Positions 25,723-35,112 of a stretch of 36,596 nucleotides of DNA are shown here, one piece after another. The DNA comes from Aneurinibacillus terranovensis DSM 18919 (GTDB lineage Bacteria > Bacillota > Bacilli > Aneurinibacillales > Aneurinibacillaceae), in assembly GCF_000430625.1 (NCBI RefSeq), contig NZ_AUMJ01000060.1, positions 1 to 36,596 of the forward strand, written 5' to 3'. The notes below the pieces were generated by a model, which saw only the letters and a program-made list of their open reading frames with translations, was not told where the DNA came from and searched no databases. Numbering within the stretch: the stretch's first letter is position 1; each line of letters begins with the position of its first letter. Both the position numbers and the translations under genes were made by a program.

Positions 25723-27114
25723 ATGGAGGAAAAAGGGCAACGAAGCCAAGAAATAGAGAAAGAGTATGGGGCTGTAGAAGCAGTTCCACAGCACGCGAGG
25801 AACGTAGAATTCTGGGACATGGTCGCCACTTGGATTGGCGCGAATGCAAATAATGGTTCCTGGTATGTGGGTGGAGTTGTCGCGGGTACCGCGTTTGCCG
25901 GATCTGTTTACGTTACTTTGATAGCCAATCCGATTGCCTATTTAATTATGGCGCTTATCGGATATATCGGATACAAAGTAGGCACCTCGACAATGGCATT
26001 AACACGTCCATCCTTCGGGATACGCGGTAGTTATTTGCCCTCCGTTCTTAATACAACCCAATTTATCGGTTGGACGGCAGTGAACACATTCATTGCGGCC
26101 ATCTCTATCAGTTTTATATGCAAAGGCTGGCTTGGATGGCCTGCTTTTGGGGAACCTGGCGGCGGTAAAACGATGTTATTCGGTATTATTGTTATGAGTA
26201 TTCTGCACTTATTGTCCATCGCCACCGGCCACAAATCCGTAAAAATGGTAGAGCGGATTGGTGTTGTTTTTATTTTAATTCTAGGTGTATGGGAAACGGT
26301 CGTTGTTTTACGAAGTGTTTCCTTTGCAGAAATTGTGCACTGGCAGCCACCGACGGATAAAAGAATGCCAATAGGCGCGGCTATGGATGCCATGGCTGCT
26401 TTCAGTCTGGGATGGGTTCCGGCGATTGCCGAATTTACCCGTTATGGAAAAACGAAAAGAACATCCACGATTGCACCAATGATTGGTGCCAATGTTGCAC
26501 TATTCTGGTTTGCCTTTATTGGAATTATTGCCACGATAGGAACGGCTATTTCCACGGGAACATACGACCCGAATAATTCAGACCCAAGTTCAATTGCCAG
26601 TAAACTGGGGCTTGGAGTTGTCGCTCTGTTAGTCATTATTTTAACGAGTACGACGGCAAACGCGGTAAATTTAATGGCCGCGGGGATTTCGTTAACGAAT
26701 ATTACAAAGAAAATCAAACCGATTGCAGCGCTCTGGCTTGTTACGATTCTTGCTGCCATACTCACGGTTGTACCGCTTTATTTAAGCAGTTTTTTGGAAT
26801 CATTTACGGCCTTTTTAGATTATATCGGTATGGTGTTTGGTCCGATCTTTTCTATCACGATTGTGGATTACTACCTAATTCGAAAGCGAAACTATGAGGC
26901 GGCGATTTTCGATGATAAGCGGGGGAAATACTGGTACCAATCCGGGTTTAACTGGGCTGCCATGGTCACGTGGGTCATCGGTGTTGTTGTTTTTTTGCTC
27001 TTGCGCCATCTATCCGCTTTTACAAGTTCAATTGGTGCGACCTATCCGGCGATTGTATTTAGCGGCATTATCTATTACATTTTAAGTAATTTGATGAAGA
27101 AGGGGCGCTTATAA
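25723..27114 (+). CDS. codB: NCS1-family cytosine permease (CodB-like)
   Basis: 463-aa transporter with about 12 hydrophobic helices. NCS1 blocks are visible: [20 protein letters not shown] in TM1, [20 protein letters not shown] in the TM3 region, [16 protein letters not shown], and [20 protein letters not shown]. It sits directly before codA and ends on the codA start codon, so cytosine is the likely substrate. The start is ATG 25723 after ATGGAGGAA. The PyrR attenuator upstream ties it to pyrimidine salvage. Confidence 0.9.
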
Positions 27115-28385
27115 TGTTCATTAAAAATGCACGGTTACGAAATAAAAACGGGCTCTGGAACCTTTTAATCAAGGATGGTAAGATTGCCCGTATCTCAGAA
27201 GAAGTATCAAGCGACGATGAATCGGAAGAGATGATAGATGCTCAGGGAGGATTAGTTCTTCCCCCTTTTATCGAGCCGCATATCCATCTCGATACAACCC
27301 TGACAGCCGGCGAACCGCGCTGGAATATAAGCGGAACCTTATTCGAAGGAATCGAGCGCTGGTCCGAACGTAAGAAGCTGCTATCAAAAGAGGATGTAAA
27401 GCAGCGGGCGACTACGGCCTTGAAGTGGCAGCTGGCACAGGGAATTCAATTCGTCCGGACGCATGTGGATGTGACAGATCCGGAACTGGTGGCCCTGCAG
27501 GCTATGCTGGAAGTAAAGGAAGAGATGGCTCCGTTTGTTGATGTGCAGATTGTCGCCTTTCCTCAGGAAGGAATACACTCATATCCGAATGGGCTGGCCT
27601 TGTTGGAAGAGTCGCTCCGCATGGGCGCCGATGTCGTAGGCGGCATTCCTCATTATGAATTTACAAGAGAGTATGGCGTAGATTCTTTGAAAAAGGTGTT
27701 TGAACTTGCGGCCAAGTACGATAGGCTAGTTGACATTCACTGCGACGAAATTGATGATGAACAATCCCGCTTTCTTGAAGTGGTGGCAGCGGAAGCCTAC
27801 CGCTATGGTATTGGGGAAAAGGTAACGGCCAGCCATACGACCGCCATGCATTCGTACAACAATGCGTATACCTCTAAACTGTTCAGGATATTGAAGCTGT
27901 CCAACATTAATTTTGTCGCGAATCCACTGGTCAACATTCACCTTCAGGGGCGTTTTGATACGTATCCAAAGCGCCGTGGTGTTACCCGGGTTAAAGAATT
28001 ACTTGAGGCAGGGCTCAATGTATGCTTCGGTCATGATGATATTTTTGATCCGTGGTATCCGCTCGGGACGGGCAACATGCTGCAAGTCCTCCATATGGGG
28101 ATTCACGTATGCCAGCTAATGGGATACGAGCAAATCTTGAATTCGATCGACTTAATCACGAACAACAGCGCTAAGACCCTCTATATTCAGGATCGGTATG
28201 GGGTGGAAGAAGGGAAATCAGGGAATCTCATTATTTTGCCGGCTGAAAATGAATATGATGCTATTCGCCGTCAGGTGCCCGTTCGGTACTCGATAAGAAA
28301 CGGCGAAGTCATTGCGGAAACAAGGCCAAGTGAAACCATGCTGCGTCTGAGTGGTAATGAAGAAAGAATAAGTTTTCAAAAGTAA
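27114..28385 (+). CDS. codA: Cytosine deaminase (CodA-like amidohydrolase)
   Basis: 423-aa metal-dependent amidohydrolase converting cytosine to uracil and ammonia. Metal ligands are [10 protein letters not shown] (His-x-His), the His in DIHCDEIDD, the His in [12 protein letters not shown], and the Asp in [15 protein letters not shown], as in E. coli Cod[10 protein letters not shown] is also typical. Its ATG shares one base with the codB stop (TAATG), so the two are coupled. Creatinine- or isoguanine-type activity cannot be excluded from sequence. Confidence 0.92.
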
Positions 28386-28400
28386 TATTGCCTTTTACTA

Positions 28401-28440
28401 AGCTCGTATCACTTTTACAGTTGTTACGGGCTGTTTTTTT
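28401..28440 (+). terminator. Terminator of the codB-codA operon
   Basis: AGCTCGTATCA and TGTTACGGGCT pair imperfectly around CTTTTACAGT, followed by seven T. Confidence 0.75.
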
Positions 28441-28507
28441 GATTTAACACGGAACAATTACCGCTTGTTTTTTTTATCAGAAAAATTTACTATAATATAA
28501 ATGCTTT

Positions 28508-28538
28508 AAATTCGGAACTTATAAACCAAAATTCGGAA
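28508..28538. promoter_or_regulatory. Direct repeat upstream of the iclR-type gene, candidate operator
   Basis: AAATTCGGAA occurs exactly at 28508-28517 and 28529-28538, 21 bp apart, which is two helical turns. A TATAAT at 28491-28496 lies just upstream, so the repeats would fall around the transcription start, fitting autoregulation by the IclR-family product. A standard-spaced -35 was not found. Confidence 0.5.
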
Positions 28539-28550
28539 TGAGGTGCCGGA

Positions 28551-29312
28551 GTGGGGGAAAAGAATAAAACGATCGTGAAATCAATGGAAGTGCTTAGCCT
28601 GTTTTATAAAAACGAACAATTAAGCTTGCAGGACATGGTAGAATTGTCCGGGAGGCCAAAGACGTCTATCTACCGGCTCGTTGGCTCTCTTGAAGAAATG
28701 GGCTTTCTTCAGAAAAATGAAAGCGGAAAATATGTACTCGGGCTTATTTTTCTCCAGCTTGGCCATCTTGTGGCAGAACGTCTTGACATCAGGCAGATTT
28801 CTTTGCCGGTTATGCGCGCGCTGCGGGATGATGTCGGCGAGGCGGTGAATCTCATCATGCAGGACGGCAAGGAAGCCATTTATATTGAAAAAGTGGATAC
28901 GATGCAGCCGGTCCGTGTGTATACGCAAATTGGACGCCGGGCCCCTTTATATGCCGGAGCCTGTCCCCGGATTCTTCTCGCTTTTCTGTCGAGAACGGAA
29001 CAGGATGAGTATATAAACCATACGGAGATGAAAGCCATCGCTTCCGGCACTCTAACAGACCCGGCTGAGCTGCGGTCCGTACTGGATCAGTCGAGAGTGC
29101 TTGGGTACTCCGTTAGCCATTCGGAATTGGAAGATCATACTTCGGCGGTGGCGGTTCCGATCTTTAACCATGCCGGAGAGGTGGCGGCAGGCTTGAGCAT
29201 TGCCGGTCCGGAAGGGCGGTTTAAGCAGGAGAGGCTGCCACAACTAGTGGAAAAAGTAAAGCAAGCCGCCAACCAAATATCACAAAAATTAGGATGGGTA
29301 TACAATAAATAG
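28551..29312 (+). CDS. IclR-family transcriptional regulator
   Basis: 253 aa. The N-terminal winged helix-turn-helix is LSLQDMVELSGRPKTSIYRL (about residues 24-45) followed by LEEMGFLQKNESGKYVLG. The C-terminal IclR effector domain includes GEAVNLIMQDGKEAIYIEKV, GRRAPLYAGACPRILLAFLS and HTSAVAVPIFNHAGEVAAGL. The start is GTG 28551 after GAGGTG. It lies between codBA and pxpBCA and reads in the same direction as pxpB, 27 bp upstream of it, so it most likely controls the pxp genes and itself. Confidence 0.9.
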   Translation: MGEKNKTIVKSMEVLSLFYKNEQLSLQDMVELSGRPKTSIYRLVGSLEEMGFLQKNESGKYVLGLIFLQLGHLVAERLDIRQISLPVMRALRDDVGEAVNLIMQDGKEAIYIEKVDTMQPVRVYTQIGRRAPLYAGACPRILLAFLSRTEQDEYINHTEMKAIASGTLTDPAELRSVLDQSRVLGYSVSHSELEDHTSAVAVPIFNHAGEVAAGLSIAGPEGRFKQERLPQLVEKVKQAANQISQKLGWVYNK

Positions 29313-29339
29313 GATGCCGTTAAAAGAGGGGGTGAAAAA

Positions 29340-30071
29340 ATGGAATTCTTTCCGCTTGGCGATTCGGCAGTGGTGATTCAAGTGGGCGATTCTATAGATG
29401 AAACTGTTCATCATAAAGTGCGAATATTGTCCGCCTATCTCGAAGATCACCCGTTCCCCGGCATGATTGAATATGTCCCGGCTTTTACAACGGTGACCGT
29501 TTTTTATGACCCGGTCCGATTTTGCGATTCGGTTTGTCATTCGAAACCTGTCGGCAATCAACTACACCCTTCCCCTTATACACGGGTTTGTGCCCTTCTG
29601 GAGCAGATGCTAATGAACCTCGATAACAAATCGAATGAACAGCAGAGAACGGTGCAAATTCCGGTTTGTTACGGGGGAGAATTCGGTCCGGATTTGGAAG
29701 ACGTAGCGGAAATGAATGGACTTACAACGGATGAAGTGATTGCGATTCACAGCGGAAATGAATATCTTGTCTATATGATTGGATTTGCGCCCGGTTTTCC
29801 GTACCTCGGTGGAATGTCAGAAAGAATTGCCGCGGCGCGGCGCTCTTCTCCGCGCATGGTGATTCCGGCAGGATCTGTAGGAATTGCCGGGATGCAGACG
29901 GGGGTTTATCCGATAGAAACGCCCGGAGGATGGCAGGTCATTGGACGGACACCTGTTGGTCTGTTTAAACCGGATGAACATCCTCCGACTCTTCTCCGTG
30001 CGGGGGACAGGATTCGATTCCACCCGGTTACCCGGGAAGAATATGAGAGATGGAAGGGGGCAGAAGGTTGA
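29340..30071 (+). CDS. pxpB: 5-oxoprolinase subunit PxpB (KipI-like)
   Basis: 243 aa of the KipI/PxpB family: FFPLGDSAVVIQVGDSID at the N terminus, VPAFTTVTVFYDP, and IGFAPGFPYLGGMS then VIPAGSVGIAGMQTGVYPIE, the cyclophilin-like signature. With PxpC and PxpA it forms an ATP-dependent 5-oxoprolinase that opens 5-oxoproline to glutamate. In B. subtilis the homologue KipI also inhibits sporulation kinase KinA. The start is ATG 29340 after GAGGGGGTG. It overlaps pxpC by 4 bp. Confidence 0.93.
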   Translation: MEFFPLGDSAVVIQVGDSIDETVHHKVRILSAYLEDHPFPGMIEYVPAFTTVTVFYDPVRFCDSVCHSKPVGNQLHPSPYTRVCALLEQMLMNLDNKSNEQQRTVQIPVCYGGEFGPDLEDVAEMNGLTTDEVIAIHSGNEYLVYMIGFAPGFPYLGGMSERIAAARRSSPRMVIPAGSVGIAGMQTGVYPIETPGGWQVIGRTPVGLFKPDEHPPTLLRAGDRIRFHPVTREEYERWKGAEG

Positions 30072-31069
30072 ATATAAACGTGCTACGCCCCGGACTTCTT
30101 ACAACGGTTCAGGATGCTGGCCGATACGGTTTTCAAAAGTACGGTGTTATTGTCGGCGGAGCGATGGATTTGTTTGCGCTGCGCATGGCCAACATACTGG
30201 TCGGTAACGAGGAAGCGGCAGCCGGATTAGAGATGACAGTAATGGGACCGGCGCTGGAGTTTACAGACGATGCGTTGATCGCGATCTGCGGCGGTAGTCT
30301 TTCCCCAGCTGTTAATGGACAGGTAGTCCCGGAGTGGCGTCCCGTATATGTAAAAAAGGGAGCGGTACTGACGTTTGAAGGCTTAGTATCAGGTTGCCGG
30401 GCATACCTCGCCATAGCGGGCGGCTTTCATGTCCCACAGATTCTCGGAAGTTATAGCACGTACTTGCGGGCGGGGATTGGCGGTTATGAAGGACGGGCGT
30501 TAAAAAAGGGTGACGTATTACAGGGCAATTCCCCTTCTGATTGGGCTCGTAGACAGATGTTATCCCTGAAAAAAGCAGAATTTTCATATGGTGCGGTAGC
30601 GGATTGGGGGATAAGCTTTGAACTGGTGCCTGCGTACAGCAGCCAGCCGGTTGTCCGCGTTCTCCGAGGGGCCCAGTTTGAAGCGTTCACGTCGGAGAGC
30701 CGAAAGAAATTTTTTGAAACGCCATACCGGGTGACCCCGCAGTCGGATCGGATGGGATACAGGCTTTCCGGGGAAAAGATGGAGCTATCTTCCCCGCTGG
30801 AACTTATCTCAGAGGCGGTTTCGGCAGGAACCATTCAGGTTCCGCCGGAAGGTCAGCCCATTATACTGCTCTCTGATCGGCAGACAACCGGGGGATACCC
30901 GAAAGTCGCCCACATCATTACCGTAGATTTACCGGTGATCGCCCAGACAAAGCCAGGGGAGAGCGTGAGGTTTCAACAAGTGTCTCTTGAGGAAGCTCAT
31001 GCACTGTATATCAAGAGGGAAAGGGATATTAAGCAAGTAAAGCAGGCCATTGCGCTGCGAAATCCATAG
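30068..31069 (+). CDS. pxpC: 5-oxoprolinase subunit PxpC (KipA/biotin-dependent carboxyltransferase-like)
   Basis: 333 aa. Family blocks are [20 protein letters not shown], then [52 protein letters not shown] and [19 protein letters not shown] 30068 is taken as start because GGGGG at 30056-30060 stands 7 nt before it and the codon overlaps the pxpB stop (TTGA). An in-frame ATG at 30050 would give a longer overlap. It pairs with PxpB. Confidence 0.93.
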
Positions 31070-31079
31070 GGGGAGAGAG

Positions 31080-31847
31080 ATGTATCAGGTAGATTTAAAC
31101 TGCGATATGGGCGAAGGTTTCGGTGCCTATCCAATGGGAACCGATGACGAAATCCTTTCCATTGTTACTTCCGCAAACATTGCCTGCGGCTTTCATGCGG
31201 GTGATCCGTCTGTTATGCGTAAAACAGTATGCCTTGCGCTAGAAAAAGGAGTGGCGATTGGAGCTCATCCCGGCTTGCCGGACCTCGTTGGATTTGGAAG
31301 AAGAAATATGGATATTTCTCCACAGGAAGCGTATGACATGGTTGTATACCAGATTGGCGCATTAGGCGGGTTTGTTAAAGCGGAAGGGGGAAGAATGCAG
31401 CACGTCAAGCCACATGGGGCTCTTTACAACATGGCCGCAAAAAATTTTCCATTGGCGGAAGCGATTGCTGAAGCGGTGTACAAGGTGGATCCGGAGTTAG
31501 TTCTTTTCGGCTTGTCCGGAAGCGAGCTTATCCGGGCAGGACAGAAAGCCGGTCTTTCTACGGCGAGTGAAGTTTTTGCGGATCGTACATACCAGCAGGA
31601 TGGGTCGCTTACACCCCGCCGCCAATCGAATGCCTTGATTACCGACACGGAACAGGCAGTCAGCCAGGTTATTCGCATGGTGAAGGAAGGAAAAGTGTGT
31701 GCTGTTCAGGGAGAAGATGTTGTTCTTCAAGCGAATACGATCTGTATTCATGGGGACGGAACACACGCCCTGCAGTTCGCCCGGCAGATTCGCCAGCGTC
31801 TACTGGGTGCAGGTGTACAGGTTCAAGCTGTTGGACATAAAAAGTAA
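31080..31847 (+). CDS. pxpA: 5-oxoprolinase subunit PxpA (LamB/YcsF family)
   Basis: 255 aa with [20 protein letters not shown] at the start, [44 protein letters not shown] and [17 protein letters not shown], the full LamB/YcsF pattern with its metal-type Asp and His residues. It supplies the 5-oxoproline-binding part of the enzyme. The start is ATG 31080 after GGGGGAGAGAG; an in-frame ATG at 31050 lies inside pxpC. It closes the iclR-pxpB-pxpC-pxpA unit. Confidence 0.94.
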
Positions 31848-32011
31848 TGGGATGCAACGAGTGAGGGCATTGAACTATAGAAATTTAGATAAAGAGAAAG
31901 AGAAAAACTAACCGGGGTGTTTTTGGGATGTCAAACCAGAAATTATGACTACCATACGCCTGGCTATCTGTTTATTATCCACTAGCTGATAGCAGTTAGT
32001 ATATTATAGGC

Positions 32012-32051
32012 AAAAAGCTCACGTCCAAATTAGAGAGGCGTGAGCTTTTTT
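32012..32051 (+). terminator. Terminator after the pxp operon
   Basis: AAAAAGCTCACG and CGTGAGCTTTTT form a 12-bp perfect stem with a 15-nt loop and one more T. It lies 165 bp after pxpA; the stretch between (31848-32011) holds no gene that I can see. Confidence 0.85.
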
Positions 32052-32121
32052 GTAAATGGTAGCATTTATCCCGCAAAAAAGCCTTTTTCTGTTGTTCACT
32101 TCTCGCCACTTGCAATAAAGA

Positions 32122-32393
32122 TTACGAGACTTTTCTTCTTGCTTTATTGCGATTTATATAGTGCATCAAAATAACAGCAATGATTCCAAAGAAAGAGGTT
32201 ACCGATATCCCAGATCCTATACTAAGGAACCCAAATCAATACGAAAACCAAAGGGAATTAGAATAAGTCCGGTAGCTATTGAAATGGAGGGAGGATAAAT
32301 TATCAATTTCTTTGTAAATGGAAACGAATTAAGAATACATGAGATTAGAAAAGCTATCGCTCCAATTATTAATACTATATTCATAGGGGTCAC
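32122..32393 (-). pseudogene. Small multi-TM membrane protein gene with an apparent frameshift
   Basis: From GTG 32393 (AGGAGG 8 nt upstream) the minus strand encodes TPMNIVLIIGAIAFLISCIL, then FPFTKKLIIYPPSISIATGL and GFRIDLGS, stopping at 32217-32219. One base out of frame, the reading continues GFLSIGSGISVTSFFGIIAV then ILMHYINRNKARRKVS and stops at 32122. Joined near 32225, the product would be about 88 aa with three membrane helices and a basic C terminus. It is either a decayed gene, a sequencing error or two overlapping small genes. The family is not recognised. Confidence 0.5.
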
Positions 32394-32402
32394 AGAAAGC
32401 AC

Positions 32403-32600
32403 CTCCTATTCTTACTTATTATAATTGCTCTTTATACTGTAAATGCTTGAAAGGTATCGTTGTATCCATATTGAGTTAGAAGTATTTGAATATCTTCATG
32501 TGAGAGAGTGTTACGTTAGGTTCATCTTCTCTGACCAGTTTACGATATCAAGTTGATGCTAGTTTTTCAATATATGCAAACATTCAATATAAAAAAGTAT
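32403..32600. other. AT-rich intergenic stretch with TTCAATATA repeats
   Basis: No gene is seen between the small membrane protein gene and the cysteine-rich peptide gene. TTCAATATA occurs twice near 32566-32590, and related ATATATTGA and CCAATATAA copies follow into the promoter region (32609-32634). They may be binding sites for one regulator. Confidence 0.4.
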
Positions 32601-32643
32601 TTTTTCAAATATATTGAAAAATATTCCAATATAATGATATAAT
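32601..32643 (+). promoter_or_regulatory. Promoter with overlapping inverted repeat for the cysteine-rich peptide gene
   Basis: -35 TTGAAA (32614-32619), an 18-bp spacer and -10 TATAAT (32638-32643). A perfect inverted repeat, TTTTTCAA (32601-32608) and TTGAAAAA (32614-32621) around ATATA, covers the -35 element, so a repressor or activator probably acts here. The ribosome binding site AAAGGGGGG follows before the ATG at 32672. Confidence 0.6.
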
Positions 32644-32671
32644 TTGGTAAATTCGAAAAGGGGGGTTTTGT

Positions 32672-33227
32672 ATGAAAAGTCGACTTTTTCTTGTAGTAAC
32701 TTTACTTCTCATGACATTTTACACAATTATTCCTTTCATAGCGATAACAGAAAAACAGGCTTATGCTGCTTCACAAAGCAATGTCAGTAAGAAGCCATGT
32801 GGCTGCGGAGGTGGGAACAAATTAAGTGTTAGCGCTACAAAAAGTTTTTCCAATTTGGCAGGTGTTGCAGGTCAAAAAGACGTTGTTAGTTCTAAACAAG
32901 TAATTGACAAAGCAAAGATTAAAGAAAAATTAGAAAAACTCAAAACTGACAAAGCGATACTAAAGGCTAAAAAAGATGCTCGATTTGCAAATACAAACAT
33001 AGACTTAAATAATGCAGAAGTAAGAGATCTCGATATCTCGATGCTAGGAATTAAGAAGCAAATTATGTGTCCTTAATTGCTTCTGTAGTGGCGCAAACTA
33101 TCAAAACTGTGCGATGCAAATTCTAGCTTGTATTGGAGCATGTTGTGGTTGTTCAAGTTGGGTCGTTTGCTTATACTGTGGTTCATGCTGGTATTCTTAC
33201 CTGTATTGTGGATTAGTTGTATGCTAA
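32672..33227 (+). pseudogene. Secreted cysteine-rich peptide precursor, halocin C8-like, with a +1 frameshift
   Basis: The first frame (32672-33076, 134 aa) has a signal peptide (FLVVTLLLMTFYTIIPFIAI, cleaved near AYA-A), then KKPCGCGGGN and a Lys-rich helical region, and stops at TAA 33074. Reading from 33075 in the +1 frame gives 50 residues with 12 cysteines: NCFCSGANYQNCAMQILACI, then GACCGCSSWVVCLYCGSCWY, then SYLYCGLVVC and a stop at 33225. Reading CCT, skipping one T and continuing joins the two exactly at the stop codon. A long leader plus a Cys-dense hydrophobic core recalls halocin C8-type bacteriocin precursors. It may be broken, mis-sequenced or decoded by +1 slippage. Confidence 0.65.
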
Positions 33228-33238
33228 GATACATTAGG

Positions 33239-33272
33239 GCTGTTGATTCCTTTTAATCAACAGCTTCTTCTA
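33239..33272 (+). terminator. Terminator after the cysteine-rich peptide gene
   Basis: GCTGTTGATT and AATCAACAGC form a perfect 10-bp stem around CCTTTT, followed by TTCTTCTAT. Its position 11 bp after the end of the +1-frame segment supports that segment being part of the gene. Confidence 0.75.
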
Positions 33273-33298
33273 TATTCATGGAAATGGGGCTGCGTAAA

Positions 33299-33679
33299 AT
33301 GAAAGAATTGTTTATAAAATCATTTTTAGTCGTAGGGTTGATTATAACGATGATTTCTCACTACAGAGGAGGCTCGTTTTATTGGATATGGATCATTCCT
33401 TTTATTATTGCCGTCTATGATCTGATTCGCTGTATTTTTCTATTGAAAAATCATGGGAAGATAAAAACTTATCAAAATAAAACAACTAACCCTGTAAATA
33501 AATACAAGGCAGGTTTTTACGTCTATTGGATGTGTATGCTTTTTTTAATGGCATCAGTCGTATTAATTTCTTACCACGTACTTTCAATAAAATACGATGT
33601 TCTAATCCTTAACACTGTGGTTAATAGCTTCTTTGCATATATAGTTATAAAATTTTATTTGGGGAAAAAACATAATTAA
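33299..33679 (+). CDS. Small four-TM membrane protein, possible immunity partner
   Basis: 126 aa with about four hydrophobic helices: ELFIKSFLVVGLIITMI, FYWIWIIPFIIAVYDLIRCI, YVYWMCMLFLMASVVLISYH and LILNTVVNSFFAYIVIKFYL. It follows the cysteine-rich peptide gene on the same strand. Many bacteriocin immunity proteins are small membrane proteins of this kind, but no sequence family is recognised, so the role is inference. ATG 33299 is preferred (GGGGC upstream); an in-frame ATG lies at 33278. Base composition is AT-rich, unlike the genes on either side of the island. Confidence 0.55.
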   Translation: MKELFIKSFLVVGLIITMISHYRGGSFYWIWIIPFIIAVYDLIRCIFLLKNHGKIKTYQNKTTNPVNKYKAGFYVYWMCMLFLMASVVLISYHVLSIKYDVLILNTVVNSFFAYIVIKFYLGKKHN

Positions 33680-33768
33680 CAACCCGTGAACGGCTAATAA
33701 GAATTGGTAGAGCCCACATGTGTTGCGGTTCGGCAGGAATTCAAATGACATTTTGTGTTTTGCCCGCC

Positions 33769-34017
33769 CTACTTTCTCATAATTAGGATTTCGTCTGAAG
33801 ACCTTGACTGTGTAGCACCAAAATATTGACTAAGAAAGGAAGCTATGTCTTCTATGGATATATTTTGCGGCAGGGTGCATTCTATGGAATCCATGCAGCG
33901 TAAATAGTCTTCACAGTTAAGATGGTCTGTGAGAATTTCGGTCACCCGTACTGCAATTAAATTGTTTAACTGGATCAATACTTTTTTAGCGGTAATGGGA
34001 TTTATTTTTATGAGCAC
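33769..34017 (-). CDS. Small protein of unknown function (82 aa)
   Basis: A minus-strand ORF whose best start is GTG 34017, since TGAGGTGG lies 6 nt upstream; an ATG at 34032 overlaps that site. The product begins LIKINPITAKKVLIQLNNLI, is mostly helical by appearance, has two cysteines (NCEDYLRC) and ends SRSSDEILIMRK. There is no signal or membrane segment and no family I recognise. Confidence 0.5.
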   Translation of the reverse strand: MLIKINPITAKKVLIQLNNLIAVRVTEILTDHLNCEDYLRCMDSIECTLPQNISIEDIASFLSQYFGATQSRSSDEILIMRK

Positions 34018-34155
34018 TGGACGCCACCTCATGAAACTTTAGATGCACATAGTACCTATTTATTATAATACGTTACGGACTATATAGAAAGTACTAGGTT
34101 AATAGAATTATACACCTTTTATCTAAAGAATTACACAGAACGGCAATAATTCAAT

Positions 34156-34269
34156 ATGATTCGTCCGGAAAAGGGCATGCTAGAGATAAGTGCAGTAAAA
34201 TCACAGGGAAAAACGCAGGGCAAAGCATCTGCTGTTTCTATTGTACAAATTGTCAGCATTAGCGGGTGA
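34156..34269 (+). CDS. Possible 37-aa ORF just before nfo
   Basis: From ATG 34156 the frame reads MIRPEKGMLEISAVKSQGKT, then QGKASAVSIVQIVSISG and a stop 6 bp before the nfo start. There is no clear ribosome binding site, so it may be chance. Its tail overlaps the GGGTGA that serves nfo. The rest of 34033-34275 holds no gene that I can see. Confidence 0.25.
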   Translation: MIRPEKGMLEISAVKSQGKTQGKASAVSIVQIVSISG

Positions 34270-34275
34270 ACATAC

Positions 34276-35112
34276 ATGTTGTTTGGCAGCCATGTGAGCA
34301 TTCGGCACGGTTATTCCTACGCGGCAAAAGCAGCGCATGTCGCTGGATGTGGTTCCTTTCAGTACTTCCCGAAAAATCCGCGCAGTTTATCTATCAAAAC
34401 CTTCGATGCTCATGATGCGATGAATTGCGCGGACTACTGCAAAGCGAACGGTCTTCTCTCTATAGCGCACACCCCGTATCCGACAAACTTTGCCGTCGAT
34501 GAAGGTACAGAAATGGCGGATAAAATTATGGGGTCCTTATTAAATGATCTAGAGATTGCGGAAGCATGCGGCTCCATAGGGGTGGTTGTTCATTTTGGAG
34601 TCTACAAAGGTAAAGATCCGTTAAAGGGCTACGTGAACATTATTGCTTTTTTAAACAGGGTGCTTCGTTCATGGAATGGGAACACTCTCGTCTTGATTGA
34701 AAACCAAGCAGGCCAGGGCACTAAAATAGGAATCACGTTAGAGGAATTAGTGCAAATCAGGAAGCTTGCCGATTATCCGGAAAAAATCGGTTTCTGTTTC
34801 GATACGTGCCATGCCTTTGCCAGTGGATTGTGGACCGGAGAAAACTGGGATGAACTTGTCGCCAGGGGAGAAGAGATCGATTATTTTTCACACCTGAAAG
34901 CTGTACACCTGAATGATTCCATGTTTGCCAGCGGATCCTTTCGCGACCGCCATGCAGATGTGGGACAAGGTTATATCGGTGAGAGAAGGATCAAGAAGCT
35001 TTTGCAAACTCCGCTTATGAAAAGGCTTCCTCTGATTCTTGAGACCCCCGGAAATATTCTCTCTCACTCCGAACAAATTGCGTATTTGAAACGTCTCTGT
35101 AAGGAATCGTAG
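34276..35112 (+). CDS. nfo: Nfo-type AP endonuclease (deoxyribonuclease IV family)
   Basis: 278-aa TIM-barrel repair enzyme of the AP endonuclease 2 family. Metal-ligand motifs are in order: FGSHVSIRHG, IAHTPYPTNF, VVVHFGVYKG, LIENQAGQGTKIG, FCFDTCHAFASG, HLNDSMFASGSFRDRHADVG and the final LETPG. These match the three-zinc site of endonuclease IV, which cuts 5' to abasic sites. In B. subtilis the homologue acts in spores, but no promoter class could be assigned here. The start is ATG 34276 with GGGTGA upstream. Confidence 0.93.
   Translation: MLFGSHVSIRHGYSYAAKAAHVAGCGSFQYFPKNPRSLSIKTFDAHDAMNCADYCKANGLLSIAHTPYPTNFAVDEGTEMADKIMGSLLNDLEIAEACGSIGVVVHFGVYKGKDPLKGYVNIIAFLNRVLRSWNGNTLVLIENQAGQGTKIGITLEELVQIRKLADYPEKIGFCFDTCHAFASGLWTGENWDELVARGEEIDYFSHLKAVHLNDSMFASGSFRDRHADVGQGYIGERRIKKLLQTPLMKRLPLILETPGNILSHSEQIAYLKRLCKES

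What the first reader, a model, noticed from the sequence alone, without database searches (positions are those of the whole stretch)
32672..33227. Cysteine-dense secreted peptide split by a +1 shift exactly at a stop codon
The signal-peptide-bearing frame ends ATG TGT CCT TAA. One base on, 50 codons with 12 cysteines run uninterrupted to a stop, directly followed by a good terminator. The join falls on CCT-TAA, where skipping one T rebuilds an open protein; slippery codon plus stop is the arrangement used by known +1 frameshifts (prfB, antizyme). The whole recalls halocin C8-like bacteriocin precursors, rare in this type of bacterium. Alternatives are a decayed gene or a base-calling error.
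Basis: partly seen in the sequence, partly recalled or inferred. Interest (0 to 1): 0.85.

Follow-up and report, generated by a model that had tools for sequence, protein, structure and literature searches.

The report
Broken gene for cysteine-rich secreted peptide
A bacterium carries a gene for a small secreted, cysteine-packed peptide (probably a weapon against other bacteria) whose reading frame is broken in the middle, most likely by ordinary mutation and not by a special decoding trick.

Summary
A 134-aa ORF with a signal peptide (32672-33076) ends at TAA. The +1 frame then encodes 50 residues with 12 Cys (33075-33227), followed by a hairpin terminator. The tail is truly coding: of 398 genomes sampled in the class (own included), one other has a relative (19 of 43 residues identical, 9 of them Cys; score 129 against 45±7 for shuffles).
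The halocin C8 domain (TIGR04449) matches neither the own genome nor either half nor the joined protein. Programmed +1 shifting is not supported: the site lacks the Shine-Dalgarno-like element and weak TGA-C stop that the same genome's prfB carries, and no second copy of the junction was found. The +1 frame is open from 33048, so the "exact" join is just the first stop met after a small indel in 33048-33076. The relative is itself cut, by a repeat found at 10 other places in its genome.
Best reading: an acquired, near-orphan, bacteriocin-like precursor beside a candidate immunity protein, inactivated by a small indel. An assembly error, or less likely true recoding, is not excluded.

The parts
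32563..32621 (.). Perfect 13-bp inverted repeat (arms 32563-32575 and 32609-32621, 33 nt apart); its second arm overlaps the -35 box of the promoter match: possible operator
   Evidence: function inferred
32614..32643 (+). Sigma-70-like promoter match TTGAAA-18-TATAAT with TG before the -10
   Evidence: 11 of 12 positions; the region as a whole has no excess of such sites (9 found, 10.4 expected)
32672..33076 (+). ORF1, 134 aa: Sec-type signal peptide (hydrophobic 2-27, AYA-A cleavage by eye), then KKPCGCGGG and a lysine-rich pro-region; ends CCT TAA
   Evidence: the signal type and cleavage site are read by eye
33048..33076 (+). Stretch in which both the ORF1 frame and the +1 frame are open: the change of frame can lie anywhere here
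33075..33227 (+). +1-frame tail, 50 aa, 12 Cys, hydrophobic (GRAVY 1.02, net charge 0), then a stop
   Evidence: homologue in G033
33237..33266 (+). Intrinsic-terminator-like hairpin, 12 pairs, T-rich tail
33278..33679 (+). 133-aa protein with about four hydrophobic segments: candidate immunity protein (start may be 33299)
   Evidence: DUF4181 below cut-off (17.1 bits against 25.4); role inferred from position only

Best explanation
This is a near-orphan gene for a secreted, Cys-rich, bacteriocin-like peptide, probably acquired on a low-GC stretch and inactivated in this strain by a small indel in 33048-33076. The intended product is a signal peptide, a roughly 100-residue pro-region and a hydrophobic Cys-rich peptide of about 50 residues. 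It would be exported by Sec, cross-linked by disulfides, cut from its pro-region, and would act on the membranes of competing bacteria. The next gene, a small membrane protein, would give immunity. In the sequence as it stands, translation stops at TAA 33074-33076 and only a tail-less 134-aa secreted protein is made. Shown: the two frames, the real coding nature of the tail, the lack of a start for the tail, the promoter and terminator matches. Inferred: that the two halves form one product, killing activity, disulfides, processing, immunity, acquisition, and loss by mutation.
For: The tail frame is conserved as protein in G033 (E 1.8e-7 for one genome; 0 of 20000 shuffles reach the score; 7 of 18 identical residues use different codons). 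The tail has no start of its own. The stretch 32001-34000 has GC 0.343 against 0.40-0.51 in the other 2-kb bins. Neither half is detected in the 10 other genomes of the family (E 0.001), nor the joined mature protein in the 14 others of the order (E 0.01). The only relative is also cut: its first 59 nt or so are a repeat found at 10 other places in that genome, and it lies at a contig end. The prfB-type signals are missing. In a survey of 1106 genomes, frame changes seen in one gene only are put down mostly to indels or sequencing errors (PMC3711429, passages).
Against: Apart from the one frame change the gene shows no damage: promoter match, ribosome site, no other stop in 184 codons, 12 Cys, terminator. 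A decayed gene would have to be recently broken. CCTT is a pyrimidine run before a stop, as CTTT is in prfB. The nearest relative is too far away and too incomplete to show an intact in-frame form, so the ancestral state is unseen. The survey just cited says of non-orphan single cases that they are likely indels or errors; [quoted passage not shown] Bacteriocin activity rests on resemblance and layout alone.
Confidence: 0.68

Rival explanations
1. The frame change is an assembly or base-calling error, and the gene is intact in the living strain.
For: The genome is a draft in 98 contigs; apart from this point the gene shows no damage.
Against: No homopolymer longer than AAA lies in 33048-33080, so the usual cause of indel errors is absent. 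Raw reads are not available here, and the sequencing method is unknown.
Confidence: 0.17
2. Programmed +1 frameshifting: tRNA-Pro on CCT slips to CTT at the TAA stop, so that a fraction of ribosomes makes the full Cys-rich precursor.
For: Pyrimidine run CCTT directly before a stop; the tail is real coding sequence with no start of its own; the genome's prfB carries a canonical +1 site. A stem straddles the junction (z -3.6 for a hand-picked 41-nt stretch, 0 of 200 shuffles as good).
Against: No SD-like element at the prfB distance of 3 nt; the nearest AGGA lies 21 nt upstream of CCT. The stop is TAA-T, not the weak TGA-C. The stem is not exceptional: 686 of 5223 stretches of 41 nt in the window fold at least as well, though only 83 of 2250 in the AT-rich 31950-34200; longer stretches have z -1.2 (61 nt) and -0.9 (121 nt), and the stretch after the stop has z 0.18. 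No second copy of the junction was found.
Confidence: 0.09
3. Two independent genes: a 134-aa secreted protein and a separate Cys-rich peptide begun by its own start or by coupled re-initiation.
For: The two open frames overlap by 29 nt (33048-33076).
Against: No ATG, GTG or TTG lies in the tail's open frame before the ATG inside the conserved Cys domain, and no SD is seen by eye before that ATG. The tail alone would lack a signal peptide.
Confidence: 0.04

Closest known systems
Halocin C8-like domain, TIGR04449 (ProC8 of haloarchaea; relatives in some genomes of this class)
   Same: Secreted precursor with a hydrophobic, Cys-containing peptide at the C-terminus (halocin C8: 283-aa precursor giving HalI and a 76-aa peptide; PMC11509114, passages).
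   Different: No match to the model in the own genome or with either half or the joined protein. Profile comparison with three halocin-type tails from the same class gives probability 0.6% over 5 columns, and pairwise score 37 against 32.9±6.2 for shuffles, 1209 of 5000 of which reach it. The part before the Cys-rich peptide is shorter. Any immunity would sit on a separate gene. By eye the signal is Sec-type; halocin C8 leaves by Tat.
prfB programmed +1 frameshift
   Same: Pyrimidine run directly before an in-frame stop; the +1 frame continues.
   Different: No internal SD-like element at the right distance, TAA-T and not TGA-C; no second copy of the junction found.
Unnamed G033 tail (L037/L056)
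   Same: NxxxCxxxILxCIGxCCGCSxxxxCLxCxxCxxxYxxCG pattern, 9 Cys aligned.
   Different: The part upstream of the tail is a repeat of that genome; the N-terminal half was not found there at E 0.1.

Membership tests
Halocin C8-like domain (TIGR04449) | Match to the curated model at 24 bits or more | tested here: not met
   No match in the own genome at E 0.001; none for the two halves or the joined 184 aa with E up to 10, though the filters drop most matches above about 0.1. Control over the cut-off in Haloferax volcanii; 4 of 398 genomes of the class pass.
Halocin C8-like domain (TIGR04449) | Sequence resemblance of the Cys-rich peptide to accepted members | tested here: not met
   three distinct tails from four of the five places over the cut-off stood for the family (L021 left out; one search used one of the three).
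Halocin C8-like domain (TIGR04449) | N-terminal part of the precursor gives immunity | not testable with these tools
   -
prfB-type programmed +1 frameshift | SD-like AGGGGG three nt before the slippery codon | tested here: not met
   Nearest AGGA 21 nt before CCT; own prfB has it; definition from PMC12421855 (passages).
prfB-type programmed +1 frameshift | Slippery pyrimidine run CTTT | tested here: inconclusive
   CCTT: a pyrimidine run, but a different codon and tRNA.
prfB-type programmed +1 frameshift | Weak stop TGA followed by C | tested here: not met
   TAA followed by T.
prfB-type programmed +1 frameshift | Site conserved across relatives | tested here: inconclusive
   No relative holding the junction was found.
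Secreted Cys-rich bacteriocin (broad kind) | Signal peptide, pro-region, Cys-rich C-terminal peptide | tested here: met
   but only if the two frames are joined.
Secreted Cys-rich bacteriocin (broad kind) | Antibacterial activity and immunity | not testable with these tools
   A membrane-protein gene lies next door; role not shown.

The most novel reading that the evidence does not exclude
A new family of secreted Cys-rich bacteriocins, matching none of the models tested, in which this strain makes the active peptide only from ribosomes that slip +1 at CCT-TAA, so that the dose is set by release-factor activity.
Probability: 0.07. Interest if true: 0.75.

Novelty: new member of a known kind. 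Interest (0 to 1): 0.27.

Why it matters
The Cys-rich tail matches no Pfam, NCBIfam, PHROGs, PADLOC or PDB entry at a meaningful score and has one credible relative in the genomes searched, so it may belong to a small uncatalogued family of secreted antibacterial peptides. If the frame change were programmed, it would be a bacterial +1 recoding outside prfB, of which few are known (recalled). As it stands, it is mainly a lead to a near-orphan peptide family, in a copy that is probably broken.

Tried and rejected
Halocin C8 membership: rejected. Weak Nif11-leader hit of ORF1 (E 0.075, 13.3 bits against a 32.3 cut-off; E 0.14 with the joined protein): taken as noise from a lysine-rich helix. Weak class hits of ORF1 (15 genomes besides the own one, E 0.0035-0.097): the best (L003) lies in a 167-aa frame that partly overlaps a DoxX-like gene (named by eye) on the other strand and has no Cys-rich tail; the other 14 were not studied one by one. 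Weak hits of the tail other than G033 (18 genomes, E 0.008-0.046): loci L038-L055 were scanned for open frames of 25 or more residues with 6 or more Cys in 45, and none resembled the tail by eye. Profile hits in 4 phylum genomes besides the own one, of 299 searched, at E 0.0019-0.0047: L068-L071 were looked at in a similar scan and taken as chance. ORF1 and tail in viral contigs, tail in phages, ORF1 and tail in plasmids: no credible relative; ORF1 was not searched in phages. Both genome-contig scans empty (the second is allowed because the first found nothing). Those scans rest on short exact peptide patterns, so distant relatives can be missed; the same holds for the viral scans. Membrane protein: 2 genomes of 396 besides the own one, E 6.4e-4 and 9.9e-4, with stops inside, taken as chance; viral contigs and plasmids none. 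PDB with the tail: best E 0.83. Rfam in 31900-34300: none at E 1. AlphaFold2 without an alignment: mean pLDDT 47, not used. Synteny with G009: its homologue of the 34276-35112 gene (54%) lies among other genes by eye, so no empty site could be read. Literature searches on halocin C8 in Bacillus (all five terms) and programmed frameshifting in bacteriocins returned no paper of the held library, which proves little; some searches gave listings that were not followed.

Full report
WHAT IS THERE. ORF1 runs from ATG 32672 to TAA 33074-33076 and encodes 134 aa. It begins with a hydrophobic stretch (residues 2-27) that ends in a plausible AYA-A cleavage site (read by eye). From 33075 the +1 frame gives 50 residues with 12 Cys and stops at 33227. 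A 12-pair hairpin with a T-rich tail follows at 33237-33266. Upstream lie a TTGAAA-18-TATAAT promoter match, a perfect 13-bp inverted repeat and a G-rich ribosome site (by eye). The next gene, 33278-33679, encodes about four hydrophobic segments.

IS THE TAIL REAL? Yes. No other stop-free stretch of 50 or more codons in the window has more than 9 Cys in 50 codons. Among 398 genomes of the class, the own one included, the tail finds one credible relative, in G033 (E 1.8e-7 for that genome, 47% over 43 residues). In the script's register 19 of 43 positions are identical, nine of them Cys; the local score is 129 against 45.1±7.4 for 20000 shuffles, none of which reaches it. Over 38 codons the identity by codon position is 0.61, 0.61 and 0.45, and 7 of 18 identical residues use different codons. 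This suits protein-level conservation in that frame. With a Markov model of the tail's own composition, 19 of 20000 copies are open with 12 or more Cys.

IS THE JOIN EXACT? Less than it seems. The +1 frame is open from 33048, so a small indel anywhere in 33048-33076 would give the same picture, and the wrong frame would in each case end at the first stop, TAA 33074. The coincidence of the join with a stop codon is therefore expected and is not evidence of design. The tail has no ATG, GTG or TTG before the Cys domain, so it cannot easily be a separate gene.

IS IT PROGRAMMED? The same genome supplies a control. Its prfB carries AGGGGG-TCT-CTT-TGA-C (gene found), the arrangement described for bacteria at large: SD-like AGGGGG three nt before CTTT, and a weak TGA-C stop (PMC12421855, passages). 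The site here has CCTT before TAA-T, and its nearest SD-like tetramer is 21 nt away. A stem straddles the junction: z is -3.6 for a hand-picked 41-nt stretch and -1.2 for 61 nt, -0.9 for 121 nt. In the whole window 686 of 5223 stretches of 41 nt fold at least as well, in the AT-rich 31950-34200 only 83 of 2250. So the stem is somewhat uncommon for its surroundings but not for the window. The stretch after the stop has z 0.18. No second copy of the junction was found: 11 genomes of the family including the own, 15 of the order including the own, 398 of the class including the own and the collection scans (phages with the tail alone). A survey of frame changes in 1106 genomes holds that single cases that are not orphan genes are likely indels or sequencing errors; [quoted passage not shown] This gene is nearly an orphan, so the survey leans towards indel or error but does not settle it.

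WHAT HAS HAPPENED TO THE RELATIVE? In G033 the first 59 nt or so of the fragment occur, at 97-100% identity, at 10 other places of that genome, and the fragment lies at a contig end. The G033 copy is therefore probably cut by a mobile repeat; what kind of element it is was not determined. The N-terminal half was not found in G033 at E 0.1 or better. Thus no intact copy has been seen, and that the two halves belong together rests on this window alone: their adjacency, the signal peptide, and the shared promoter and terminator matches.

WHAT KIND OF THING IS IT? By layout, a secreted precursor with a hydrophobic Cys-rich C-terminal peptide beside a small membrane protein looks like a bacteriocin with its immunity gene. 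This is inference. It is not a member of TIGR04449 as tested. That family does occur in this class: 4 of 398 genomes pass its cut-off, all in one genus. Pfam, PHROGs and PADLOC give nothing meaningful for either half, nor the PDB for the tail. The stretch 32001-34000 has GC 0.343 against 0.40-0.51 in the other 2-kb bins of the window. Neither half is detected in the 10 other genomes of the family, and the membrane protein has no credible match outside the own genome among 396. This suits recent acquisition.

VERDICT. An assembly error comes next (0.17). Programmed +1 frameshifting stays possible (0.09) and is directly testable. The lasting value is a lead to an uncatalogued Cys-rich secreted peptide family.

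Noticed in passing
L088 (G000:C35:20400-21434): prfB of this genome has the canonical programmed +1 site AGGGGG-TCT-CTT-TGA-C.
   Followed up: yes
32563-32621: Perfect 13-bp inverted repeat overlapping the promoter match of the Cys-rich gene: possible operator of an unknown regulator.
   Followed up: no
33050-33090: Quasi-palindromic stem with one bulge straddles the frame junction; such sequences can be indel hotspots (recalled). 686 of 5223 stretches of the window fold as well, 83 of 2250 nearby.
   Followed up: partly
L037, L056-L066 (G033): A repeat end of about 59 nt, present at ten further places in G033, abuts the only credible relative of the Cys-rich tail; reverse-transcriptase-like sequence of the group II intron kind lies nearby (by eye).
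   Followed up: partly
25723-31847: Run of genes for an NCS1-type transporter, cytosine deaminase, an IclR-like regulator (by eye) and 5-oxoprolinase subunits on the + strand, just before the low-GC stretch.
   Followed up: no
L018-L021, L036: Halocin C8-like domain proteins over the curated cut-off in 4 of 398 genomes of the class, all in one genus; one genome has two copies.
   Followed up: partly
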